Assembly (NCBI RefSeq): GCF_900128965.1
Contig: NZ_FQUL01000026.1
Location: 1-32,490, forward strand
Direction of reading: 5' to 3'
Length of the DNA stretch: 32,490 bases
Origin: Ferrithrix thermotolerans DSM 19514
Lineage (GTDB): Bacteria > Actinomycetota > Acidimicrobiia > Acidimicrobiales > Acidimicrobiaceae
In this document: piece after piece, positions 15,044-29,987 of the stretch
How the letters are laid out: each line of letters begins with the position of its first letter
Numbering within the stretch: the stretch's first letter is position 1
The notes under the pieces: generated by a model
Told to the model about the DNA's origin: nothing
Database searches by the model: none
The model's input: the letters and a program-made list of their open reading frames with translations, nothing else
Program-made: the position numbers and the translations under genes

Positions 15044-16201
15044 TCAAATTTGAAGACCGTAGAGTTTGTCTGCATTTCTGTACGCAATCAGCTCAGCTGT
15101 TTCAACGGCCATAGACTCGCTACAGACACCGCAGCTCACCCATGTCTCTAAGGTAGAGCCCAAGGCCTCGCGAAAAAGTAACTGACCGAGAAAGTGGAGT
15201 TCTGGCAGACCGTACGCGTCGGAAGAGTACATAAGTCTTACAAAGGGTGCAAGTTCCAGCGTCTCTTTTAGGATTTCACTGGACCGTGAGCCCACGTAGT
15301 TCATCGTCAGGCCAAGATCCAGATAAACGTTTTCAAACGCATGTGCGAGATATGCCGCAGAGCGATGGTAGGGGTAACAGTGCAAGAGCACGATCTTTCG
15401 GCCCATTGACGCTGCCCTTTTGATTACCGGAGTTAGCAGTGATGGATTTGTCTGATCCAACTGGATGTCTGGATCACCGAATCCAATATGAAACTGAATC
15501 GGTAGGTTACAAACCTCAAGCGATGTGTGAACGAGGTACGACTCGACTAAGGTACCCTCCATACGTGGTAGTGCTCCCCGAAGTTTGGCCTCACCCAAAA
15601 TACGATCAAGAGCTAGCTTGACATCTCCTTTATCGGGAGGTACAGCACTTAGACTCAAACCTCCCCGATATGCTGCTACGGACTTTAGTGCGATCGCGTT
15701 CTGAGCTCTTGACCCAAGACGAGACGGGAACAGATTCATAAACTCGGCGGATCCAACCTCAGCAAGCAGACTCTCAGCGACCGCTTCAACCCTTACAATC
15801 TCAAGGCAGTTGGTGCCACTATAGATCGAAAGATCCTCGATCGAGATGAGGTCTGAAGAGTTAAACCCCGTATCGACCAGATGCGTTCTGACGCCCAAGG
15901 CGCTCATGAACCGTGTAATTACATCCGACGGCGATAACTCACCTCTTCGAGATACATAGGTCTGTGGTGACTCAAAACTTTCACCACCTAAAACCTGAGG
16001 GCAGTGTTTCAGCAAAGTCATGCCCACCATAGACCGAAACGCATCCAGCTCCCCCGATCTCCTTGGAGGAGACTCTCTTAGAAAGTTACTGAACCCCAAA
16101 AGGCTAAGTTCAGATCCGCTTACTGAGTGACAGTGATTATCGACTAGGGATAAGCTTCTTACATAGTCTTTGATCTCAGATCCACCGTTATCTTTCGTCA
16201 T
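15044..16201 (-). CDS. Amidohydrolase of the FluG N-terminal type
   Basis: The 385-residue metal-dependent hydrolase has the amidohydrolase-2 pattern: HxH after the first strand (VDNHCHS, His 23 and 25), a histidine in FHIGFGDPD, another in VLLHCYPYHR and a terminal metal aspartate in MYSSDAYGLPE. The last motif is characteristic of the N-terminal domain of FluG/NodGS proteins, which are fused to a glutamine-synthetase-like domain in fungi and plants. Here the synthetase is a separate gene two positions upstream in the same minus-strand group. A role in hydrolysing a gamma-glutamyl or related amide is inferred from that context. It ends the three-gene group, 29 bp after the RpiR gene. Confidence 0.82.
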   Translation of the reverse strand: MTKDNGGSEIKDYVRSLSLVDNHCHSVSGSELSLLGFSNFLRESPPRRSGELDAFRSMVGMTLLKHCPQVLGGESFESPQTYVSRRGELSPSDVITRFMSALGVRTHLVDTGFNSSDLISIEDLSIYSGTNCLEIVRVEAVAESLLAEVGSAEFMNLFPSRLGSRAQNAIALKSVAAYRGGLSLSAVPPDKGDVKLALDRILGEAKLRGALPRMEGTLVESYLVHTSLEVCNLPIQFHIGFGDPDIQLDQTNPSLLTPVIKRAASMGRKIVLLHCYPYHRSAAYLAHAFENVYLDLGLTMNYVGSRSSEILKETLELAPFVRLMYSSDAYGLPELHFLGQLLFREALGSTLETWVSCGVCSESMAVETAELIAYRNADKLYGLQI

Positions 16202-16230
16202 CTATCTCCATATCTGATTGAACTTGATAT

Positions 16231-17169
16231 CTAAGACTCAACCGGGGAGACACCGCCTCTCCCCAGCAACATCCCGTGAGAAAGATCAACGTATCTATTT
16301 AGCCGGGAATCGTCCTTCCCAAATATGTTACGAGCCACAAGAGCAGTCAGCAGCTCAACAAGAGCCAAGGTCGGAACCATAGTATTAAATGGCGACAGTC
16401 CTTCGATCTCGGAGGTAAGAACGACGTCGGCGTAAGCTGACGCTGGTGAAAGGAACGGATCTGTCATCACGATCAAAGACGCTCCCGCCTCCTTTACCGA
16501 TCGTGCAAACTCTACGGCTTCTCTCTGGTATCTCCGGTAGTCCAAAAGCAGCACCGTTGTCCCCTTTGATATGTCCAAGAGGGCATTGATTCGTGCACCT
16601 TCTGAGTCTTCAAGAAACCTTACCTTCGGTCTTATGACCTCCATTGTCCAGCTAGCCTGCATCGCAACAGTGCGGGACGCCCGACCACCTGTGATGTATA
16701 GATCCCTTCTAATATCCCCAAGAAGATCGACAGCGCGTTTGATCTCCTCGTCCAAAAGTCCGTTCATCGACCTCTGGATCTGATTAGCAAGCTCCATAGC
16801 GGCGCTCACTCCAAACTCTTTGAAGGTTCTATCACCTCGCAGAGGGTCGCTGTATCTGGGTGGGGCGAGACGTAGCTCGAGCTCTTTTAGCAAGGAGTCA
16901 CGCATCTCAGAGAAGCTAGCGAAGCCGAGACGAGCTACAAGGCGAGTAACGGTTGGATCAGAGACACCCGCTTGTGCCGCTAGCGCAGAGGCTGTAGTAA
17001 TTCCAGATACCGGATAGTTCGATAGGAGTGCTTCAGCAACTCTAAGTTCCGCCTTTGATAGCGAGGGCTTTATCGAGCGTAACGCCGACGATACAGTTGC
17101 ATCTGTAGTCGACGACTGCTTATCTTCTTCTGCTTCTAGATCATCGGACATGTCCCCTGAAAACGTCAT
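16231..17169 (-). CDS. RpiR-family transcriptional regulator (HTH + SIS domain)
   Basis: 312 residues. The N-terminal HTH_6 domain (about 30-105) carries the helix-turn-helix SALAAQAGVSDPTVTRLVARLGF, and the C-terminal SIS domain (about 135-275) carries YITGGRAS and VLLLDYRRY. Most RpiR proteins sense phosphorylated sugars through the SIS fold, but in actinobacteria they also control amine and purine catabolism. Here it lies between the glutamine-synthetase-like and amidohydrolase genes (gaps of 30 and 29 bp), so it is likely to be the local regulator of the whole amine cluster. The effector is unknown. The start region is Asp/Glu-rich and the exact ATG is not certain. Confidence 0.9.
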   Translation of the reverse strand: MTFSGDMSDDLEAEEDKQSSTTDATVSSALRSIKPSLSKAELRVAEALLSNYPVSGITTASALAAQAGVSDPTVTRLVARLGFASFSEMRDSLLKELELRLAPPRYSDPLRGDRTFKEFGVSAAMELANQIQRSMNGLLDEEIKRAVDLLGDIRRDLYITGGRASRTVAMQASWTMEVIRPKVRFLEDSEGARINALLDISKGTTVLLLDYRRYQREAVEFARSVKEAGASLIVMTDPFLSPASAYADVVLTSEIEGLSPFNTMVPTLALVELLTALVARNIFGKDDSRLNRYVDLSHGMLLGRGGVSPVES

Positions 17170-17199
17170 CAGTGGTCTCTCCCATCTCTGCTCTTACGC

Positions 17200-18582
17200 T
17201 TAGTAACGCCATCTTGTCGCGCTTACGATCTCCTCTGGCGTCATCTCCTTGGTTAGTAAGATCTCACCATATTTCACAGCCACAAAGGCTTCTAAGAGTT
17301 CTTCACCCATAGAGTCCCTCAGAACGTCGGATTTTGAGAGCATATCTACCGCCTCGCTTAGAGAATGAGGTAGCTCATTCACTCCGAGGCTTTCCCTCTC
17401 CGATTCGCTAAGAGACCCCGGGTCTACAGATATCGGTTCTCCAACCTCTAACTTGCTATCGACATAAGACCCAGCAACGGCGCATATCGACCCGGTCGCA
17501 AGATATGGGCTGCTGGAAAGGTCAAAGGGCTTTATCTCTACGTTAGCTCCTTCTTTACTGACAAGGTTAGTCTCCGCAACAAGGCGGAGTGCGGCCTCCC
17601 TGTTGTCCAAGCCCCAGCATTGAAATGCTCCAGCCCATCGGTGAGGAACGAGCCTTAGGTAAGAAGCCGGCGACGACGCCCCAACCGCACACAGTGCTGG
17701 CAACTCCATTAGCAATCCAGCAAGCAAGGATCGAGCCTTTGGATTTAGAGCAAACCGCTCCTCTTCTGCGCGAGCGAAAATAGGTCCTGCTTCATCTTTG
17801 AAGGACACATGAAGATGGCCGCCGTTGCCGACCCCGCCAGCGGTTACCAAAGGCGCAAAACTAACCCGGTAACCATGCTTTTTAGACACCAGCTTTATCG
17901 TGTGTCGCACAACGACTCTTAGATCCGCTGCTCTAATAGGGTCGCTGGCCTCGATGGATATCTCAAACTGCCCCGGTGCATACTCAGGATGAATCTGCTC
18001 CACCGATATCTGCTGAGCGGTAAGGGCGTTGTAGATATCCATTACGTAGCTATCCAGTTCGCCCAAGCGGTCAAGACTATAGGCTGGAGCCTGTGTCGTT
18101 GGGATGAACTCATCTTCTCGATCTAAGGAGATAGCCCACTCAATCTCGAACGCCATCTTAGATGAGATGCCTCTTTCACATAAGCGCTGATAGGAACGCC
18201 TGACGTACTGGCGATGACAAAGTGGATGTGGCTTTAGATCTTGTCTAAATCTTTCCACTGGCACCATAGCCCAACCTGGGGATGCCTCTAAGGGGATGAG
18301 GCAGGACAGGTCCGGCACGAGTCTTAGCTCTCCTATGGGTCCACCTGAATACCGAGAAGAGGTAATCGAATCATCAAACAAGAACGCATCAAAGACCGGT
18401 GACATACCGATACCGGATCTAGCGGCTCCCCTTAGTCGTTCCACTGGAATACTCTTGACACGAGTAATTCCAGAGTTTTCGGTGTAAAAGAGCCCTACCG
18501 CTCTTACACCATTACCTATGACTTGGGAGTGGACATGCTCCCACAGCTGATCGTTTTGTTCTTGCAACTCCTCAAAGCGCAT
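17200..18582 (-). CDS. Glutamine-synthetase-like gamma-glutamylamide synthetase (GlnA3/GlnA4/PuuA-like)
   Basis: 460 residues with a complete GS catalytic fold: the EIEW pair (about 146-149), HPEYAPGQFE (199-208), the NGGHLHVS ammonia-site strand (253-260) where true GS has NGSGMH, a WGLDNREAALR nucleotide/glutamate site (about 323-333) and EIKPFDLSSSPYLA (about 349-362). NGGHLHV and NREA-type variants are typical of PuuA-type enzymes that ligate glutamate to polyamines, ethanolamine or other amines rather than to ammonia. The neighbouring permease, gamma-glutamyl hydrolase and amidohydrolase fit that role. ATG 18582 is fixed by GGAGGAAG five bases upstream; the preceding GTG at 18585 is too close. 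The amine is not predictable from the sequence. Confidence 0.85.
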   Translation of the reverse strand: MRFEELQEQNDQLWEHVHSQVIGNGVRAVGLFYTENSGITRVKSIPVERLRGAARSGIGMSPVFDAFLFDDSITSSRYSGGPIGELRLVPDLSCLIPLEASPGWAMVPVERFRQDLKPHPLCHRQYVRRSYQRLCERGISSKMAFEIEWAISLDREDEFIPTTQAPAYSLDRLGELDSYVMDIYNALTAQQISVEQIHPEYAPGQFEISIEASDPIRAADLRVVVRHTIKLVSKKHGYRVSFAPLVTAGGVGNGGHLHVSFKDEAGPIFARAEEERFALNPKARSLLAGLLMELPALCAVGASSPASYLRLVPHRWAGAFQCWGLDNREAALRLVAETNLVSKEGANVEIKPFDLSSSPYLATGSICAVAGSYVDSKLEVGEPISVDPGSLSESERESLGVNELPHSLSEAVDMLSKSDVLRDSMGEELLEAFVAVKYGEILLTKEMTPEEIVSATRWRY

Positions 18583-18587
18583 CACGA

Positions 18588-18595
18588 CTTCCTCC
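18588..18595 (-). promoter_or_regulatory. Ribosome binding site of the GS-like gene
   Basis: GGAGGAAG on the minus strand, five bases before ATG 18582. It selects the ATG over the adjacent upstream GTG 18585. Confidence 0.75.
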
Positions 18596-18745
18596 CCTGC
18601 AACCTCTAGAAAATAACACGATGTAAGGCATCTCTCGGCTACTTGATAGAACTTCTTCGATCTGTAACATTATTAACGGGAGCATCAGGCACGAGATAAT
18701 GATAAAACATTGCATAGGACTATAAGAGCAAGGGGGATCCATAAG

Positions 18746-20254
18746 GTGGAAACTGTGCAGTCTGAACAGAGGCATCTAAAGAAAGAACTCTCTATCTGGC
18801 AGGTGGTGGGGCTATCGGTGGCGCTCATGGCTCCCTCAATGGCAGCCAACATCAACCCACAAGGTTCTGCCAGCGCAGCCGGTAGAGCGGTACCCCTGAC
18901 GTTCTTGTTTGCAGCTATTGGCATCATGTTCATCGCATACGTATTCGTAAGGCTTACACAGCACTTCAACCATGCTGGATCTGTATTTGGATTCGTAGGA
19001 GCCACTATCGGTCCAAGATTTGGGGTAATAGCGGGATGGTCCTTGATGGGTACCTATATCTCCTATGCCTTGGTGACCTCAATCGCTTCGTCTATATTCG
19101 CCACATCGCTTCTTCAAAGTCTTGGAGTTATGAAGAATCCGCCTTCTTGGACACCGTTTTTAATTCAGGCGATAGAGCTCTCCCTGGTACTCATGCTTGC
19201 AGTAAGGCCGGCAAAGAAAGGGACACACTTTCTGCTAAGTGTCGAGGGGCTAACAGTTCTCATGATCGTTGCGATATCGGTAGTCATCTTGATAAAGCTC
19301 ATAGTAGGACATGGGCCTCAAGGTCAGCACTTTACACTTTCGGTCTTTACACCGGCAAAAGGCGTGACGTCTTCAGATCTTTTCTTGGGTGTGGTATTTG
19401 GTTTCTTATCGTTTGCAGGCTTTGAGGCCTCCGCAACCCTGGGAGAGGAGGCAAAGCACCCAAAGAAAGACATACCAAGAGCAATATTATGGACCGCTGT
19501 ATTTGGAGGGATCTACTTTGTCTTTGTTACCTCGGTGGAGGTGATGGGATTTGGTACCTCTTCTAAGCAGATCAATAGCTTCATAAACACTGGCTCGCTT
19601 CTTGGTTCTTTAGGTAGTACCTACGTTGCCTCATGGATCGGAAACCTAATCACAGTCGGCACGGTTATCTCTGCCTTTGGATGTGCGCTTGCCTCTACCG
19701 TTGGAGCCTCCCGTCTTCTCTTTGCCCTAAATAGGGACTCAGTGGAGACGAAGCCATTACTTGTAATCTCACGACGTTACGATACGCCTACCGTCGCCAC
19801 GGCAGCGGTCGTTGCCTTCACCGCTTTAGTCACGTGGTTTGTCGCAGTGATACTAGGTTCATCTGCGTTCGACGAGTTTAACTGGTTTGGAACAATCGGA
19901 ACTCTCATACTTTTAGTGGTCTACCTCTTGGCTACAGCTGGAGCGTTTCACCTACTCTTTATCTCTAAAAAGCTTGAAGTTCCAAAGTACGAGATGGTTA
20001 TGCCAATAATGGCTATCGCAATACTTGGTTACACAATATTTAGGAACGTCTACCCCTATCCAACAGGTGCTCTAGCGTGGTTGCCCGCTGCCAGCGGGGG
20101 TTGGGTCCTCGTATCTTTGGTTGTAGTGGCTCTCAGACCCAAACTGGCAAAGAAGGCTGGGTTACGCCTAACCCAAAACGAGGGTCTCATACCCCAGGAC
20201 TCCGCCTATGAGTTAGATCACGGTCACGAAGCTCTAGATTTGGAGACGAGGTAG
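18746..20254 (+). CDS. APC-family amino acid/amine permease (PuuP/YfnA-like)
   Basis: About 502 residues and twelve predicted spans. The first span begins ELSIWQVVGLSVALMAPSMA and contains the APC substrate-site glycine/alanine pattern. Later come FAGFEASATLGEEAKHPKKD, the APC signature at the end of TM6, and RLLFALNRD in the TM8 loop. It imports an amino acid, polyamine or related amine by proton or sodium coupling. GTG 18746 is chosen because AGGGGG lies nine bases upstream (18731-18736); the longer TTG 18710 frame has no such site. It is divergent from the GS-like gene across a 163-bp promoter gap and runs straight into the PuuD-like gene. Confidence 0.86.
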   Translation: METVQSEQRHLKKELSIWQVVGLSVALMAPSMAANINPQGSASAAGRAVPLTFLFAAIGIMFIAYVFVRLTQHFNHAGSVFGFVGATIGPRFGVIAGWSLMGTYISYALVTSIASSIFATSLLQSLGVMKNPPSWTPFLIQAIELSLVLMLAVRPAKKGTHFLLSVEGLTVLMIVAISVVILIKLIVGHGPQGQHFTLSVFTPAKGVTSSDLFLGVVFGFLSFAGFEASATLGEEAKHPKKDIPRAILWTAVFGGIYFVFVTSVEVMGFGTSSKQINSFINTGSLLGSLGSTYVASWIGNLITVGTVISAFGCALASTVGASRLLFALNRDSVETKPLLVISRRYDTPTVATAAVVAFTALVTWFVAVILGSSAFDEFNWFGTIGTLILLVVYLLATAGAFHLLFISKKLEVPKYEMVMPIMAIAILGYTIFRNVYPYPTGALAWLPAASGGWVLVSLVVVALRPKLAKKAGLRLTQNEGLIPQDSAYELDHGHEALDLETR

Positions 20255-20289
20255 ACTCCAGGAAGATCATCCAAACAGGCCCTAGTTAT

Positions 20290-21018
20290 ATGAAGTCAGG
20301 ATGGGATTTGCATAAAACAGCTGTTGTATTCGGGACAATGAGTACCGACCGATACGGTGTGCATCGGGGGTACATCGAGTCACTGGGCGCTGTTGGCGCA
20401 GTGGCCATTCCAGTGTCATCTCTAACTGTGGTCGGTTTGGAGGCGGGAGGAGTTCCCGACTCTGTTAGGGACTATGCCATGGCAGTAGCTAGTTCATGTG
20501 ACTCTCTGCTTCTAACCGGCGGTGGGGACGTCGATCCACTTCGCTACGGACAAGAACGCTCTGAGAAGACCGCTGGCGTCGAGCCACATAGAGACGACCT
20601 TGAAATTTCTCTCCTTCGTGCCTTTATGGCGGCTAACAAGAAGATACTTGCTGTCTGTAGAGGGGTACAGATACTAAATGTTGCTTTGGGCGGTACCTTA
20701 ATCCAGGATTTGGTAGGCGGAGGCTATCGAGACCACATGGTAACAGAGAAGGAGTATAGTTTCGCCCATCCAGTCCACTTCGAGCAAGGAACAAAGATAT
20801 CTCGGCTTAGCCACGGCATTACCGAGGTGAACTCTCTTCATCATCAGGCTATCGACGTTTTGTCCTCTGCTCTAAAGGTGTCCGCTTACTCCGATGACGG
20901 AGTTGTCGAAGCCGTTGAAACCGACAACGTCATAGGGCTTCAGTGGCACCCCGAGCGAATGATTGAAGCTGACAGAAACGAGCTGACTTACTTTGAATGG
21001 CTAATCGACAAAGACTAA
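20290..21018 (+). CDS. puuD: Gamma-glutamyl hydrolase, class I glutamine amidotransferase type (PuuD-like, peptidase C26)
   Basis: A 242-residue enzyme with the complete triad of the family: Cys 123 in AVCRGVQILNVALGG, and His 220 and Glu 222 in LQWHPERM. LLLTGGGDVDP (about 74-83) is the usual oxyanion-region turn. PuuD hydrolyses gamma-glutamyl-GABA in putrescine breakdown; relatives split other gamma-glutamyl compounds. Thirty-five bases after the permease and so most likely in its operon. Together with the divergent GS-like ligase it forms the make-and-break pair of a gamma-glutamylation route. Its preference for GABA or another acid is not shown by sequence. Confidence 0.88.
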   Translation: MKSGWDLHKTAVVFGTMSTDRYGVHRGYIESLGAVGAVAIPVSSLTVVGLEAGGVPDSVRDYAMAVASSCDSLLLTGGGDVDPLRYGQERSEKTAGVEPHRDDLEISLLRAFMAANKKILAVCRGVQILNVALGGTLIQDLVGGGYRDHMVTEKEYSFAHPVHFEQGTKISRLSHGITEVNSLHHQAIDVLSSALKVSAYSDDGVVEAVETDNVIGLQWHPERMIEADRNELTYFEWLIDKD

Positions 21019-21063: not shown

Positions 21064-21870
21064 CTAGTCGGTCACCGGCAAAACTAGCTGTGGTTTGCTG
21101 ATTTTGTGCTCCTTAGAGATAGGAGTCACGGCTGAGCCAACCGCAAAGAACTCAATGGTATGGGAACCCCAACCGTGCGAACCCTCGAAGAGATTGACTC
21201 CGACTATGCCTTCTGCCTGAACTTGCTTTGCCTCTTCACCCATCCTAGCCATGGCAAGTTCTCGAGCATCATAGAGGGCTTGGGTGTAGTTGGTCATCTC
21301 GACGTTCTTCATGGCGTTTCCCAACCCTTGTCTGAGGGTCTGATGAGCTACGTGGTAGACGCAATTTCCCATGACAAGGCTCAGCGGCCGATAGCCGGCT
21401 TGAATAAGAGTCCAAAAGTCCTGCCCTGAAAGGTCCGAGGTGAACGGACGGCCGTCGGGTGCCCTATGCAGCACTCCGTCCCTGTGTTTGATCGCCGTAC
21501 CGATAGCTATAAACTCTGCCAGATCAGCGCCCCACTCGTAGCGTCCCACCTCGAGTCTGACCCCTATTACGCCGTCCGCACCTAACTGATCAGCCTCTTC
21601 TTCCATGCGCGTCATAGCCAGCTCACGAGCGTGGTACATGGCCTGAGTCAAAACAGTGAGCTCCTGGCTCTGCTGCCATCTAGCAAACTGAAACCCTATG
21701 TGATAGATCGAACTCCCCACAACCAGCCCAAGAGGTTCAAAACCCGCCTCTTTGACGAGGAGGAACTCATTTACAGAAAGGTCAGAGGTGAATAGTCCAG
21801 CTCGATTTTGGGCTAAGCGTACCCCCGCGTCTTTTGGAAGACCCTCTGTTGACGTTGGATCGTAGGACAT
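21064..21870 (-). CDS. Tandem YbjQ/UPF0145-like domain protein
   Basis: 268 residues made of two copies of one domain. Copy 1 (about 20-135) and copy 2 (about 140-260) each start with (F)TSDLS followed by a hydrophobic strand with (G)xxPLxLVxGxxxYH. Each then has a long ARELAMxRMxEEA helix, a (L)GADGVIGV or EGIVGVN strand and an FxAxGTAV-like end, as in single-domain YbjQ proteins. YbjQ is an oligomeric beta/alpha protein of unknown role, labelled 'heavy-metal-binding' on limited evidence. No signal peptide. It is the last gene of a three-gene minus-strand group, 61 bp after the related gene. The PuuD-like gene is convergent. Confidence 0.8.
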   Translation of the reverse strand: MSYDPTSTEGLPKDAGVRLAQNRAGLFTSDLSVNEFLLVKEAGFEPLGLVVGSSIYHIGFQFARWQQSQELTVLTQAMYHARELAMTRMEEEADQLGADGVIGVRLEVGRYEWGADLAEFIAIGTAIKHRDGVLHRAPDGRPFTSDLSGQDFWTLIQAGYRPLSLVMGNCVYHVAHQTLRQGLGNAMKNVEMTNYTQALYDARELAMARMGEEAKQVQAEGIVGVNLFEGSHGWGSHTIEFFAVGSAVTPISKEHKISKPQLVLPVTD

Positions 21871-21931
21871 CTATAAAACCCCTTCTAGGTATTCACAGGC
21901 GTTCTGAAACTGCCAGCTGTATTTGGACCTT

Positions 21932-22882
21932 CTATCTCTTCATGCTCATAACCAACTGCGCTTTCTCGAAGGGCTCATGGAGGCTAAGCTCTGCGATCGC
22001 TGTCGCAACCATCTCCGCCGTGTAGATCGCTGAGTCCGGATTCTCACCGTTCATCTGTGAGATTGAATAACCGCGTGACGTTACCTTGAGATCTGCTCCG
22101 ACGACTCCGTGAGCTCCAAGGGAACGAGCGAGCTCGTGGACCCTGGACATAACTGCGTTCCTCGATTCGTAGTAACACTGTGTAAACTCCGCAATCTCAA
22201 AGTTCCCACCACCGCTATATATATAGCTCATCGCCTGGAGCGTTGAGTACGATAAGGCAGTGAAGAGAACAGATGTATGAGCCGCTAGACCAAGAGGGAT
22301 GAAACCACTTGAAACTATCTTGGCTAGCTCTTGACCAGAAAACGTAGTAAGTACTGGTCGTGAGCGCCCTTGACGATCAACTAACACGCTCCGCAGCTTC
22401 GGGAACGACATCGCTGTACCCAATATCGAGTAAGAGATTACGTTACCCCCAACGTCGAGGCGGTTGTCTAACACCTTTACGCCAGTCACCACATCTGCAT
22501 CTACAGCCTCTGCCTCCATGAGCATCCTGGCAAAGGCCGTTGAGCGTGCGTTGTTATATGCGTCTTGCAACGGCCCGATCACACCTCTCCCAAAGCCGGG
22601 AAACTGGTAGTATCCGACCTGATATACGCACGCTCCCAAAACCTGAGTCAACGGAGATAAGCCCGCTTGTCTTAGCAGCAAGAACTCATTTACGGACAGG
22701 TCAGAGGTGTAGGCAGCACCATCCCTATCTCCGACGCTTTTCAGCCTCAAAACTGCGCTGGGAGGAAGTGTTCCAGCCTCAAGTGCAGCTCTAGTCTCCT
22801 CTGCAGACACCCCAAAGGAATCAAGATCAGCTCTACCGCCAGTTGCATCCTGTATCGATCTGGATCTCCGGAAAATTGGCAT
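21932..22882 (-). CDS. Second tandem YbjQ/UPF0145-like domain protein
   Basis: A 316-residue paralogue of the following gene. Its N-terminal 55 residues are unique. Domain 1 (about 56-165) opens YTSDLSVNEFLLLRQAGLSPL and ends YSILGTAMS. Domain 2 (about 175-305) is more diverged (LTTFSGQELAKIVSSGFIPL). It keeps the long helix with VMSRVHELARSLGAHGVVGAD but carries an inserted loop near its end. DNA for the TSDLSVNEF motif is nearly the same in both genes, so the pair arose by duplication. It starts three bases after the stop of the upstream 141-residue gene, so the two are co-transcribed and probably act together. Function unknown. Confidence 0.8.
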   Translation of the reverse strand: MPIFRRSRSIQDATGGRADLDSFGVSAEETRAALEAGTLPPSAVLRLKSVGDRDGAAYTSDLSVNEFLLLRQAGLSPLTQVLGACVYQVGYYQFPGFGRGVIGPLQDAYNNARSTAFARMLMEAEAVDADVVTGVKVLDNRLDVGGNVISYSILGTAMSFPKLRSVLVDRQGRSRPVLTTFSGQELAKIVSSGFIPLGLAAHTSVLFTALSYSTLQAMSYIYSGGGNFEIAEFTQCYYESRNAVMSRVHELARSLGAHGVVGADLKVTSRGYSISQMNGENPDSAIYTAEMVATAIAELSLHEPFEKAQLVMSMKR

Positions 22883-22885
22883 CTT

Positions 22886-23311
22886 TTAGGACGCCCCGAG
22901 GATCTTGAGAATAGCCTCCCGATCTCTGCCGGCCTGCGAAGCCCTTGTGGCCGTCTCTTTGATCAGCTCCTTGAGCCAGACCTCCAAAGTAACCTGCTGA
23001 TTTTTCACCGATACCCCACCAATAACCTTTGAGATAACACACTGAGGCGAAGAACCCGACGCCTGTGGAGTGATGCGAAACACAAGGTCTCCCATCCCCA
23101 GCTCAGCCTTCTCTAAAGATCCTGATCCCAAGAACTTTTTTTTCCTCTTTAGGCTGACAGATCCGATCTGCAACGATGCTATCTTGTCGATTAGTGTGGG
23201 CAGAAAGACATCGAGGTCTCTTAGGTCGTAGCGCAGGGACGATGCGAGCATCTCGATATCGAAAGGCGGAAGGTCGTTCCCGCCTTCCTCAGGAGACTCA
23301 CCTACTACCAT
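22886..23311 (-). CDS. Hypothetical protein of the YbjQ-like operon
   Basis: I do not recognise this 141-residue protein. It is soluble, starts with an acidic leader (ESPEEGG), has a central LKRKKK basic patch and ends in a lysine/alanine-rich amphipathic helix (LIKETATRASQAGRD). No metal or catalytic motif stands out. It is the first gene of the group with the two tandem YbjQ proteins (3-bp gap to the next) and shares a 121-bp divergent promoter gap with the sedolisin gene. Confidence 0.65.
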   Translation of the reverse strand: MVVGESPEEGGNDLPPFDIEMLASSLRYDLRDLDVFLPTLIDKIASLQIGSVSLKRKKKFLGSGSLEKAELGMGDLVFRITPQASGSSPQCVISKVIGGVSVKNQQVTLEVWLKELIKETATRASQAGRDREAILKILGAS

Positions 23312-23432: not shown

Positions 23433-25280
23433 ATGGAGAGACTGCCGAGATTGTCCGCAAGCGTTGCACCTGATAAACGTCTGGTCCGTGTTCGTCCTCA
23501 GGTAACTTTGGTTATCGTGGTCGTCGCCTCTTTGGTGCTGGGGTCTGTATCGGCATTGCTCTTGAATCACTATCGACAAGATAGGCTTGCGGCGTCGGTT
23601 ACGCACCACAACGTAGACGCATACCTGATCCTTTCGTCCGCTAACGAGACTGGCCTAATCCACTTCGACGCATCAGTCTCTACGCCTGGTTCTGCTAACT
23701 TCGGAAGGTTCTTGACAACCGCACAGTTCGCAGATCGCTTTGGGGCATCAGAATCAGACATAGGTATGCTACGTAACTACTTCAGCTCGTACCGCATGAG
23801 CACGGAAAGACCTTGGGCAAACCGCCTGGTAATGGAGGTCAAGGGTAGTGTGCCTGAAGCCTCAAAAGCTCTAGGAGTAAGCTTCCACGAGGTCAGGGTG
23901 GGATCCCTGGGCCAGTACCCAGAAGCTGACCAACTTCCTGCTCTACCCCCAAAGATTCAAGGCGCAGTCGTTGCCGTGGTTGGTCTGTTTCCCAACGGCA
24001 ACATACCTTCCGTAAAAAATCAAATAACCGAGAACAAGACCTATCAGTTAGTCAGGTATCGACGATCGACCGCTAAGGGTTTTCCAGCTAAAGCCTCAAT
24101 GATTAGATCCAATCACACCACAGGGTCAGTAAAGGGTTGTGCCGCAGCACAGTTGCAGGCTTATCAACAGGGAGCCTATCTCCCAAATCAGATCTCGGCA
24201 CTTTATCAGATGACTCCGTTTTACAGACTTCAGGACTACGGGCAAAATGTAGTTGCTGCATTTCCCGAGTTTACTAACCCTCAGGCACCAGATAGCGCCT
24301 TTGTTTCATCCGTCAAAGACTATCTGAAGTGTTTTTCGATCTCGCCTCGGTCGATAAGCTACTATCAAGTAGCTGGAGGTTCCGCAAATCACTCGACTAA
24401 CAACCTCGAAGAGGCGTCGTTAGACGTAGAGAACTTTCTCTCTTTGGCACCAAAGGCAAGAGCCATAATTTACTCCTCAACCCAGGCAAACTCAGATCTT
24501 ATGTTCATGCAGATGGTAGCACAGGATCGGGCAGATCTTATAGTTTCATCGTGGGGTTCATGCGAGGCGGACACATTTTCCCCTGATGTACAGGCTGAAA
24601 ATCTAGCCTTCCTAGAAGCTGCTGCACAGGGTCAAAGCGTCATGTCAGCAGCGGGTGACGACGGGTCAGCTGACTGCTGGTCGTCAGGGCACAACACCTC
24701 CCTTTCGGTTGACGATCCAGCTTCACAACCTTACGTAACGGGAGTCGGTGGAGTGCAATACAACGGTCCCCTAGCCTCGACACCGCCGTCAGTGTGGAAC
24801 GATCCGAACTACTCCGGCGGCACTGGTGGCGGCGTTAGCACGTTATGGCCAACTCCCACCTATCAATCCCAGATATATCACAACGATCAAGAGGCGGTAT
24901 CTAACTGCGCCATCCAGCTAGGTTGCAGACTCGTTCCAGACGTCTCTACGTTAGGAGAAGGATTTTTGGTGCACACACCTACTTATGGCTGGGACGTGAT
25001 CGGGGGAACATCAGGTTCCACTCCCATCTTTGCCTCAGGTGTTGCTCTAATGCAAAGCTACATCGGTCATCGACTCGGGTTTTTAAATCCTTTCTTGTAC
25101 AAGGCTTATCAGGACAGCACAGCCACGTTCACCGACGTACAGAGAGGAAACAACGACTACCACCACGTAAATGACGGACTCTACAAGGCAATCAAAGGCT
25201 ACGACGTAGCATCTGGGTTGGGAACGCCTCGATTTTTCGCTCTGGCCTCCTCCTACCTGCGTTTTGATCCTAGCCGCTGA
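23433..25280 (+). CDS. Sedolisin-type serine-carboxyl peptidase (S53), membrane-anchored preproenzyme
   Basis: 615 residues. A basic N-terminus and one span (about 24-45) act as a signal anchor. A pro-domain (about 60-185) has the activation-peptide fold with NANFGRFLT-like segments (SANFGRFLTTAQFADRFG). The mature S53 domain carries the catalytic Glu 327 and Asp 331 (EEASLDVE, spacing four), the oxyanion Asp 409 in AAGDDGSADC, and the nucleophile Ser 527 in GGTSGSTP. The calcium site at the C-terminus (FTDVQRGNND, then GYDVASGLGTP) is intact. S53 enzymes work at low pH outside the cell, which fits an acidophile. ATG 23433 has no clear ribosome binding site. Divergent from the YbjQ-like operon. 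Confidence 0.9.
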   Translation: MERLPRLSASVAPDKRLVRVRPQVTLVIVVVASLVLGSVSALLLNHYRQDRLAASVTHHNVDAYLILSSANETGLIHFDASVSTPGSANFGRFLTTAQFADRFGASESDIGMLRNYFSSYRMSTERPWANRLVMEVKGSVPEASKALGVSFHEVRVGSLGQYPEADQLPALPPKIQGAVVAVVGLFPNGNIPSVKNQITENKTYQLVRYRRSTAKGFPAKASMIRSNHTTGSVKGCAAAQLQAYQQGAYLPNQISALYQMTPFYRLQDYGQNVVAAFPEFTNPQAPDSAFVSSVKDYLKCFSISPRSISYYQVAGGSANHSTNNLEEASLDVENFLSLAPKARAIIYSSTQANSDLMFMQMVAQDRADLIVSSWGSCEADTFSPDVQAENLAFLEAAAQGQSVMSAAGDDGSADCWSSGHNTSLSVDDPASQPYVTGVGGVQYNGPLASTPPSVWNDPNYSGGTGGGVSTLWPTPTYQSQIYHNDQEAVSNCAIQLGCRLVPDVSTLGEGFLVHTPTYGWDVIGGTSGSTPIFASGVALMQSYIGHRLGFLNPFLYKAYQDSTATFTDVQRGNNDYHHVNDGLYKAIKGYDVASGLGTPRFFALASSYLRFDPSR

Positions 25281-28563: not shown

Positions 28564-29157
28564 CTACCGGTGCCGTTTCATCTCCGAGAAGCTAGGAGTT
28601 CTAACTAAGGTAGACACGGCGTCGAAGACGTCGAGCGCTTCTTGACCACTTAGTGTTTCCGTTAGAATCGGTCCATAGATGGCACGCTGATCAGCTATTT
28701 CAAGCACGGGTGATCCCGTTCCATCTCCGGCAAGTTTGTGAGCGTAGGAGTGCATCGCTCGAAGCAGGTCATCGATACTCTCATCTTTGAGATGCACTCT
28801 GCATCCGTCTAAGCCGACTTCACTTAGACATCTCTCAACGACGTCAAGTGATACTTGTTCTTCACCTTCAAACCATGCCTCACCTAAGGCCCTATAAAAC
28901 CTCCCGATATCTTCATATCGCGCATCTTCACAGAGCTTGGCAATGACCCTCAAGGCAAACAGAGAAACATTTAGCGCATCTGCGTACTCTTCGGGGATGG
29001 CTCCCTCGTTCAAGAAATAGAGAGAGAAGGGCCTCCACATAATCTCTATCTCCTTTGAGTTGGAAATTTCGACCAGCCAACGGGAAGTCTTCCAGGTCCA
29101 GGGGCATACAGGATCAAAATAAAAGGCAACCTGGCCTTCTGCAGGTTTTTCAAACAT
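28564..29157 (-). CDS. DsbA-fold thiol oxidoreductase, mycothiol-dependent nitroreductase-like (Rv2466c type)
   Basis: 197 residues, cytosolic, with the active site DPVCPWTW (Cys 18) after the first strand, then the helical insert and the cis-proline strand GTGSPVLEI typical of DsbA/HCCA-isomerase-like proteins. The (F)DPVCPWxWxTSRW opening resembles mycobacterial Rv2466c, a mycothiol-dependent reductase with CPWC. Here the second cysteine is replaced by threonine (CPWT), which would leave a single-cysteine, thiol-S-transferase-like mechanism. The likely thiol cofactor is mycothiol, from the family. Divergent from the AlaX gene with a short gap. Confidence 0.75.
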   Translation of the reverse strand: MFEKPAEGQVAFYFDPVCPWTWKTSRWLVEISNSKEIEIMWRPFSLYFLNEGAIPEEYADALNVSLFALRVIAKLCEDARYEDIGRFYRALGEAWFEGEEQVSLDVVERCLSEVGLDGCRVHLKDESIDDLLRAMHSYAHKLAGDGTGSPVLEIADQRAIYGPILTETLSGQEALDVFDAVSTLVRTPSFSEMKRHR

Positions 29158-29246
29158 TGGATAGCCTTCCTCTCTTTAAGCTGAGTGTTTCATCAGTCAC
29201 CGCTGAACTACTCACTTCATACTACGTCGCCTACTATATTGCAACT

Positions 29247-29987
29247 GTGGAAGAGCACTACGTAGAGCACTATGGACCTACCCAAAGACTCGAACTCAAC
29301 GATCCCTATCTCTCAACTAATCGCGCCACCGTCATAAGGACCGGTCCAGATGGCATCGTCCTAGACAGATCATGCATCTACCTAGGCGGAGGGGGACAGC
29401 CCCACGACACTGGAAAGATCCTCCGTGAGAATAAAGAGTTTCTTATAACCAATGTCAAAAAGGTCGAGGGGAACGCCTATCTAACACTCTCTGAAGACGG
29501 CAGCGACCATCTCCAGCCAGGGGACGATGTCGAGGTAGCTGTCGACTTTGAAAGACGTTATCAGCTGATGAGAACTCACACGGCAATGCACCTCGTGGCA
29601 GCAGTTCTCAACAAGATCGTCGATGCACCGGTAAGCGGATCGGCCATGGAGCCACTTAGCGGTCGACTTGACTTTGACCTCGGGTCGTTATCTATGCCCC
29701 CAACCGAAGAGTTGTCCGAAATGTGCAACTTGGAGGTGCAAGCCGCAAGAGAGCTTCGTTGGTACCACATATCCGCTGACGATCAAAGTGATGATCTGAT
29801 AAAGACCGCTGCAAACCTCCTACCAAAGGGGCTCACACATATTCGGATAGTCGAGATAGAAGGACTAGATCGACAGGCTGACGGTGGAACTCATGTGAAG
29901 AATACATCCGAGATAGGTAAAATCAGTATCGATAAAGTAGAAAGTAAAGGGAAAGGTTTCAAACGAGTACGAATCTCCCTGTCGTAA
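29247..29987 (+). CDS. Alanyl-tRNA editing protein, AlaX type
   Basis: A trans-editing enzyme that hydrolyses Ser-tRNA(Ala) or Gly-tRNA(Ala). About 246 residues: an N-terminal beta domain with GGGGQPHDTG, the zinc histidines of RTHTAMHLVAA and a third site in DRQADGGTHVKNT, where the usual cysteine of CGGTHV is replaced by aspartate. The frame is open back to 29055, overlapping the divergent DsbA-like gene. Because the conserved core begins at about RLELNDPYLS, GTG 29247 is preferred; no Shine-Dalgarno sequence supports either end. No alaS is near. The medium-length domain set fits AlaX-M. Confidence 0.8.
   Translation: MEEHYVEHYGPTQRLELNDPYLSTNRATVIRTGPDGIVLDRSCIYLGGGGQPHDTGKILRENKEFLITNVKKVEGNAYLTLSEDGSDHLQPGDDVEVAVDFERRYQLMRTHTAMHLVAAVLNKIVDAPVSGSAMEPLSGRLDFDLGSLSMPPTEELSEMCNLEVQAARELRWYHISADDQSDDLIKTAANLLPKGLTHIRIVEIEGLDRQADGGTHVKNTSEIGKISIDKVESKGKGFKRVRISLS

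What the first reader, a model, noticed from the sequence alone, without database searches (positions are those of the whole stretch)
21064..23311. Operon with four YbjQ-like domains in two duplicated genes plus a new small protein
Each of two proteins contains two YbjQ-like domains. The motif TSDLSVNEF and its DNA are almost identical in both genes, so one arose from the other. The co-transcribed 141-residue leader protein is unknown. YbjQ normally forms ring-like oligomers of single domains, so fused double domains could make a hetero-oligomeric shell or ring.
Basis: partly seen in the sequence, partly recalled or inferred. Interest (0 to 1): 0.6.

Follow-up and report, generated by a model that had tools for sequence, protein, structure and literature searches.

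The report
Three-gene double-YbjQ system beside PspA
Three neighbouring bacterial genes, two that each carry a pair of YbjQ domains and one small protein of no known family, form a conserved unit found together in several bacterial phyla, sometimes beside the membrane-repair gene pspA, so they probably act as one machine that may serve the cell membrane.

Summary
Window 21064-23311 (minus strand) carries three adjacent genes: P3 (141 aa), P2 (316 aa) and P1 (268 aa). P1 and P2 each hold two YbjQ domains; P3 matches no family searched. The unit is widely conserved. In 201 Chloroflexota genomes P1 occurs in 31 and P3 in 33, and all 31 have both. Of 80 P1 loci (the best 80 of a capped scan), 64 have P3 near P1, and 15 of the other 16 genomes also encode P3. 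Trees show that the domain fusion came first and that the P1/P2 split predates the spread over several phyla, so the near-identical TSDLSVNEF DNA is not a recent copy. P1 keeps an invariant C-x-x-H in its second domain; P2 has mostly lost it. The most recurrent outside neighbour is pspA (17 of 139 regions, about 0.45 expected), in three phyla and several arrangements, but not in the window. Best reading: P1 and P2 form a mixed YbjQ assembly, P3 is its adaptor, and the machine helps PspA maintain the membrane. The system is solid; the mechanism is inferred. A shell is unsupported.

The parts
22886..23311 (-). P3: 141-aa protein of an unnamed family, first gene of the unit
   Evidence: no family match; predicted helix - five strands - helix - helix, pLDDT 79.7; co-occurs with P1
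21932..22882 (-). P2: 316-aa divergent double-YbjQ protein
   Evidence: Pfam YbjQ_1 44.5 bits, 2 stretches
21064..21870 (-). P1: 268-aa strongly conserved double-YbjQ protein
   Evidence: Pfam YbjQ_1 80.6 bits, 2 stretches; model matches 1vr4 and 1y2i
21481..21792 (-). P1 N-domain, about residues 27-130
   Evidence: limits approximate
21121..21444 (-). P1 C-domain, about residues 143-250; holds invariant C170 and H173
   Evidence: limits approximate
22403..22711 (-). P2 N-domain, about residues 58-160
   Evidence: limits approximate
21998..22351 (-). P2 C-domain, about residues 178-295, divergent
   Evidence: limits approximate
21763..21789 (-). TSDLSVNEF motif of P1
22682..22708 (-). TSDLSVNEF motif of P2

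Best explanation
The three genes encode one cytosolic machine. P1 and P2, each a tandem of two YbjQ domains, assemble into a mixed ring-like oligomer in which P1 carries the conserved ligand site and P2 is a fast-evolving partner that has mostly lost it. P3 is a small adaptor. The assembly works at the inner face of the membrane as a regulator or helper of PspA (the bacterial ESCRT-III-type membrane-repair protein) during envelope stress. Shown: gene anatomy, YbjQ identity, co-inheritance of P1 and P3, ancient paralogy, and repeated pspA adjacency. Inferred: physical assembly, cytosolic place, ligand binding, the adaptor role, and the functional tie to PspA.
For: Co-inheritance: in 201 Chloroflexota genomes P1 is in 31 and P3 in 33, with 31 in both, 2 P3-only and 0 P1-only (Fisher p 2e-34 without correction for kinship). 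P3 lies near P1 in 64 of 80 loci, and 15 of the 16 genomes whose P1 locus lacks it encode P3. All 21 P3 matches among 60 relatives lie next to double-YbjQ genes. Three of 3 plasmid records with P1 also carry P3. PspA: 17 of 139 regions hold a pspA gene near the unit, against about 0.45 expected (my arithmetic, from 28 PspA matches in 16 genomes of about 83.8 Mb, and 1.34 Mb of regions). It is just downstream of P1 in 12 of 14 Bacillota loci, divergent upstream in three Chloroflexota genomes, beside the unit in a fourth, and upstream in line in one genome of the window's order. Division of labour: C170 and H173 are kept in 42 of 42 P1 but in 7 and 1 of 24 P2. Fold: P1's model also matches the envelope-stress protein RcsF (Foldseek E 8.7e-3, probability 0.99).
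Against: 122 of 139 regions, the window included, have no pspA nearby; the one PspA found in the window's genome lies on another contig. The 12 Bacillota cases mostly share a neighbourhood, so I count perhaps three to five independent events. The 139 regions include some contigs fetched twice. The expected rate rests on 16 hand-picked genomes and on the Pfam model, while the count used a profile built from three unit-side PspA proteins. PspA is common in any case (15 of those 16 genomes). Fourteen of 64 loci, as I read, have P3 and P1 without a nearby P2. One genome (G010) has a weak P3 match with no YbjQ gene nearby. No oligomer, binding or expression data exist here. The 2024 survey of PspA neighbourhoods does not mention YbjQ in its main text (PMC11237479, term search).
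Confidence: 0.42

Rival explanations
1. A metal-handling system: P1 binds a metal or thiol-reactive ligand through C170, H173, H232 and H237, and the unit buffers or senses heavy metals. PspA adjacency is incidental.
For: C170 and H173 are in 42 of 42 P1, H232 in 40 and H237 in 41. Pfam calls YbjQ_1 putative heavy-metal-binding. Some hosts are acidophiles by name, such as Sulfoacidibacillus and Alicyclobacillus, or come from bog and palsa by isolate name (their metal exposure is my recall).
Against: None of the 22 largest neighbour clusters has a representative that Pfam names as a metal transporter or metal regulator (one of the 22 had no match, smaller clusters were not scanned). YbjQ is only predicted to bind metals in the paper whose passages I saw (PMC4092069). 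Hosts include Kutzneria and Streptomyces, soil bacteria by recall.
Confidence: 0.25
2. A hetero-oligomeric shell or compartment, with P3 as cargo or cap.
For: Solved YbjQ entries hold five chains; two paralogous tandem proteins lie in one gene run.
Against: The encapsulin match is 12.7 bits against a cut-off of 90. Apart from PspA, most of the large neighbour clusters stay within one or two lineages, and none looks like a cargo enzyme that travels with the unit. P3 matches neither YbjQ nor any solved fold clearly.
Confidence: 0.07
3. A mobile accessory or defence-like module whose benefit is unrelated to the membrane.
For: Patchy spread (8 of 396 genomes of the phylum; 33 of 201 Chloroflexota) and presence on Streptomyces and Aulosira plasmids.
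Against: No PADLOC match for any of the three proteins. The neighbour clusters that were scanned are mostly metabolic; neighbours were not themselves run against PADLOC.
Confidence: 0.1

Closest known systems
YbjQ / UPF0145 family (Pfam PF01906; 1vr4, 2gtc, 1y2i)
   Same: Same domain by profile and by fold.
   Different: The solved chains are single domains (103-133 residues); here two domains are fused, in two paralogs, with a dedicated third protein.
PSP envelope-stress systems with PspA partners such as PspAA (PMC11237479, passages only)
   Same: Recurrent pspA neighbour and a partner-protein logic.
   Different: YbjQ is not mentioned in that paper's main text. P3 is not PspAA: no Pfam hit, profile comparison 0.6% probability. 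122 of 139 regions are not linked to pspA.
RcsF / DUF1471 stress domains (PMC4092069, passages only)
   Same: The paper groups YbjQ with RcsF and DUF1471 by fold; the P1 model matches RcsF weakly.
   Different: RcsF is an outer-membrane lipoprotein with redox-active disulfides; I see no export signal in P1, but ran no predictor.
Frataxin-like sandwich
   Same: P3's helix - five strands - helix order; best Z 6.8 to 3oeq.
   Different: Z is under 8, the tool's own line for common arrangements; frataxin is not among the sequence-profile matches.

Membership tests
YbjQ / UPF0145 (PF01906) | Profile score above the curated cut-off of 23 bits | tested here: met
   P1 80.6, P2 44.5 bits; each of four domains over the cut-off
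YbjQ / UPF0145 (PF01906) | YbjQ fold | tested here: met
   P1 model to 1vr4 E 1.7e-4 and 1y2i E 2.0e-4; P2 was not modelled
YbjQ / UPF0145 (PF01906) | One domain per chain, as in the solved members | tested here: not met
   Two stretches per protein; so these are a fused variant of the family
YbjQ / UPF0145 (PF01906) | Pentameric assembly | not testable with these tools
   No multi-chain prediction was available
PspAA (PF22743) | P3 matches the PspAA profile | tested here: not met
   No Pfam hit for P3; hhalign of the P3 alignment with 20 PspAA domains, probability 0.6%
PSP system component | Conserved gene neighbourhood with pspA | tested here: inconclusive
   17 of 139 regions, expected about 0.45; absent at the window
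Encapsulin family 4C | NF041192 score of at least 90 | tested here: not met
   P1 12.7 bits; no hit for P2 or P3
Frataxin fold (P3) | Clear structural match | tested here: inconclusive
   Z 6.8, rmsd 3.8, 80 residues
Anti-phage defence systems | PADLOC model match | tested here: not met
   None for P1, P2, P3 and three P3 relatives

The most novel reading that the evidence does not exclude
An undescribed three-protein machine, spread across several phyla and carried on plasmids, in which a mixed ring of tandem YbjQ proteins and a small protein of a new family controls the assembly of PspA, that is, a dedicated regulator of a bacterial ESCRT-III polymer.
Probability: 0.3. Interest if true: 0.75.

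Novelty: new variant of a known kind. Interest (0 to 1): 0.58.

Why it matters
The YbjQ domain is called uncharacterized in the one structure paper whose passages I saw (PMC4092069), and no title among the 17 listed papers that hold the name is about it. A conserved partner protein and a repeated link to pspA give these proteins a testable context, in organisms such as Alicyclobacillus, Sulfoacidibacillus and Streptomyces. P3 would be a new protein family. If the PspA link is real, it adds a regulator to the bacterial ESCRT-III system.

Tried and rejected
Recent duplication of P1 and P2: rejected by the domain tree (P1-as-one-clade p-AU 0.036) and by the whole-protein tree. The domain tree has long branches and an unsettled bootstrap, and its P2 rows all come from the window's phylum; the whole-protein tree has P2 from several phyla but also flags long P2 branches and uses a simpler model.

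P3 as a YbjQ or PspAA relative: rejected by profile comparison. P3 against solved structures: Foldseek gave no match with E below 0.001; the second look peaked at Z 6.8; a sequence profile search gave nothing below E 0.12. Absence of a clear match does not show a new fold.

Acyltransferase after P3-P1 in 7 Solirubrobacterales loci, aspartokinase in Bacillota, PIG-L and GGDEF genes in one genus of the window's family, and the other large neighbour clusters: kept as lineage synteny only. Two upstream plasmid genes had no Pfam match.

P3 without an adjacent YbjQ gene: G010 and, within 1.5 kb, L156, L168 and L170. For the last three, P1 lies on another contig of the genome.

Literature: YbjQ gave 17 papers (listing; [quoted passage not shown] The latter two, seen as passages, only list such proteins in expression tables; in PMC10533852 a PspA and a heavy metal-binding domain protein stand in one list of raised genes, with no sign that the latter is a YbjQ. 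Open-licence papers only; no supplements were read.

Full report
What is in the window. Three genes lie head to tail on the minus strand: P3 (22886-23311, 141 aa), P2 (21932-22882, 316 aa) and P1 (21064-21870, 268 aa). P1 and P2 each hold two YbjQ_1 domains, at 80.6 and 44.5 bits against a cut-off of 23, and each of the four passes alone in the whole-genome scan. P3 matches nothing in Pfam, NCBIfam, PHROGs or PADLOC. P3 and P2 are 3 nt apart, P2 and P1 61 nt, with no terminator-like site. The genes on either side point the other way and are a class-I amidotransferase and a kumamolisin-like protease.

The three genes are one unit. A P3 search of 60 relatives found 21 genomes, the own one included. 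In all 20 loci fetched, P3 lies beside double-YbjQ genes, and so it does in the 21st. In 396 genomes drawn from the phylum 8 had P3, the own one included, and 7 of the 8 had YbjQ genes beside it; G010 is the exception. An iterated P3 profile finds P3 in 64 of these 80, within 2.6 kb of P1 in every case and on the same strand in 63. Seven of the 16 without it have P1 or P2 at a contig end, by my reading (L083, L106, L118, L124, L127, L131, L137). A search of the 16 genomes found P3 in 15; the exception is G677. Some of these P3 genes are ones already counted beside another P1, since several of the 80 loci share a genome. By record title the hosts with both genes include Actinomycetota, Chloroflexota, Bacillota, Chthonomonadaceae, an Abditibacteriaceae genome, Obscuribacterales, a Holophagaceae genome and a Dormiibacterota genome. 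Most are metagenome bins, but isolates such as Conexibacter sp. S30A1, Sulfoacidibacillus thermotolerans, Alicyclobacillus sp. SP_1, Kutzneria sp. CA-103260 and Ktedonosporobacter rubrisoli are among them.

A fairer presence test. In 201 Chloroflexota genomes, drawn by the tool, P3 is in 33 and P1-like proteins in 31 at E 1e-40 (the handles shown indicate the same draw). All 31 have P3. The two P3-only genomes are a 1.1-Mb assembly and one whose P3 match runs to a contig end. Fisher p is 2e-34, without correction for kinship. Only the first 10 to 20 first-look candidates per genome were scored in these searches, so misses are possible. In some genomes the unit is split: G546 has P3 on one contig and P2-P1 on another, and Conexibacter sp. 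S30A1 has P3-P1 at one place and P2-P1 at another. Co-occurrence that outlives linkage argues for joint function.

Order varies. P3 upstream of P1 is commonest; P2-P1-P3 occurs in one genus of the window's family and elsewhere. Fourteen of the 64 loci have P3-P1 with no P2 nearby (my reading). The unit is on three plasmids, two of Streptomyces and one of Aulosira, all with P3 beside P1. [quoted passage not shown] the Aulosira copy looks shortened.

History. A tree of 66 single domains puts P1-N with P2-N and P1-C with P2-C (100/98): two domains fused first, then the fused gene duplicated. A tree of 50 whole proteins separates 25 P1 (97/96) from 24 P2 (100/99), each drawn from several phyla, with the C80 paralog beside P1. 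Identity to the window's protein is 60-94% for 14 P1 and 24-63% for 13 P2. The DNA identity of the motif, 25 of 27, is 19-22 of 27 in five relatives, so it is no sign of recent copying.

What P1 and P2 look like. The P1 model has pLDDT 87.7 and matches the YbjQ structures 1vr4 and 1y2i, then, more weakly, RcsF. A published comparison also groups YbjQ, RcsF and DUF1471 and calls the YbjQ structures pentamers (PMC4092069, passages). Of 42 P1, all keep C170 and H173, 40 keep H232 and 41 keep H237; of 24 P2, 7 keep C170, 1 keeps H173 and 6 keep H237. Both keep R88, E92, G124, N189 and E191 in every row. So P2 keeps the scaffold but not the likely site. The alignment of P2's second domain is the least sure part, and that a site exists is inference.

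What P3 looks like. Its model (pLDDT 79.7, pTM 0.71) is helix, five strands, helix, helix. Foldseek gives nothing below E 0.001. The second look puts frataxin first at Z 6.8, under the line at which the tool trusts a match. P3 is not PspAA and not a YbjQ domain by profile comparison.

The pspA neighbour. After clustering neighbours within 4 kb, the largest family outside the unit is PspA/IM30 (Pfam). Representatives of the other 21 largest clusters are mostly lineage-bound genes such as pyruvate kinase, amidase, aspartokinase, an MFS transporter and acyltransferase; one has no Pfam match. PspA is directly downstream of P1 in 12 of the 14 loci titled Bacillota or by Bacillota genera, divergent upstream of P3 in Ktedonosporobacter and two more Chloroflexota genomes, near the unit in another, and directly upstream of P3 on the same strand in G055 of the window's own order. 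In all, 17 of 139 regions, against about 0.45 expected by my arithmetic. The rate comes from 28 PspA matches in 16 unit-bearing genomes of about 83.8 Mb. Against this, 122 regions have none, the window's genome keeps its one detected PspA (fused to PspAA) on another contig, and the Bacillota cases share ancestry. I count three to five independent cases.

Judgement. That this is a real, conserved three-part system is close to certain (about 0.97). That P1 and P2 assemble together is likely but untested. That it serves PspA or the membrane is the best lead, at about 0.4. A term search of the main text of the 2024 survey of PspA neighbourhoods shows no mention of YbjQ, and in the held library the two joint searches found one paper each, with the names only in expression tables. 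Supplements, web tables and closed papers were not seen, so the system may be described there.

Noticed in passing
G000 contig C80, 9797-10336 (L022, L062): Third double-YbjQ gene in the window's genome, sister to P1 in the tree, with no P3 beside it; the next gene has no Pfam match.
   Followed up: partly
window 15047-21018: Amidohydrolase, RpiR-type regulator, glutamine synthetase-like protein, amino acid permease and a class-I amidotransferase (Peptidase_C26): looks like a polyamine or amide catabolism cluster beside the unit.
   Followed up: no
window 23433-25280: 615-aa protein with a pro-kumamolisin activation domain and a subtilase-type domain, divergent from P3; kept there in same-genus relatives.
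   Followed up: partly
window 28564-29157 and 29055-29987: Mycothiol-dependent nitroreductase-like gene overlapping, on the other strand, an open frame that matches alanyl-tRNA synthetase domains; the start of the latter is probably further in.
   Followed up: no
L089, L091, L095, L096, L097, L101, L103: An acyltransferase gene (PF01553 in L101) follows P3-P1 in these Solirubrobacterales loci.
   Followed up: partly
L061 (G010): A distant P3 relative with no YbjQ gene nearby, beside a PIG-L gene of the kind that also flanks P3 in a sister genus.
   Followed up: partly
L242 (AP018309.1, Aulosira laxa plasmid): P3 and P1 relatives that look shortened or broken in a cyanobacterial conjugative plasmid.
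   Followed up: no
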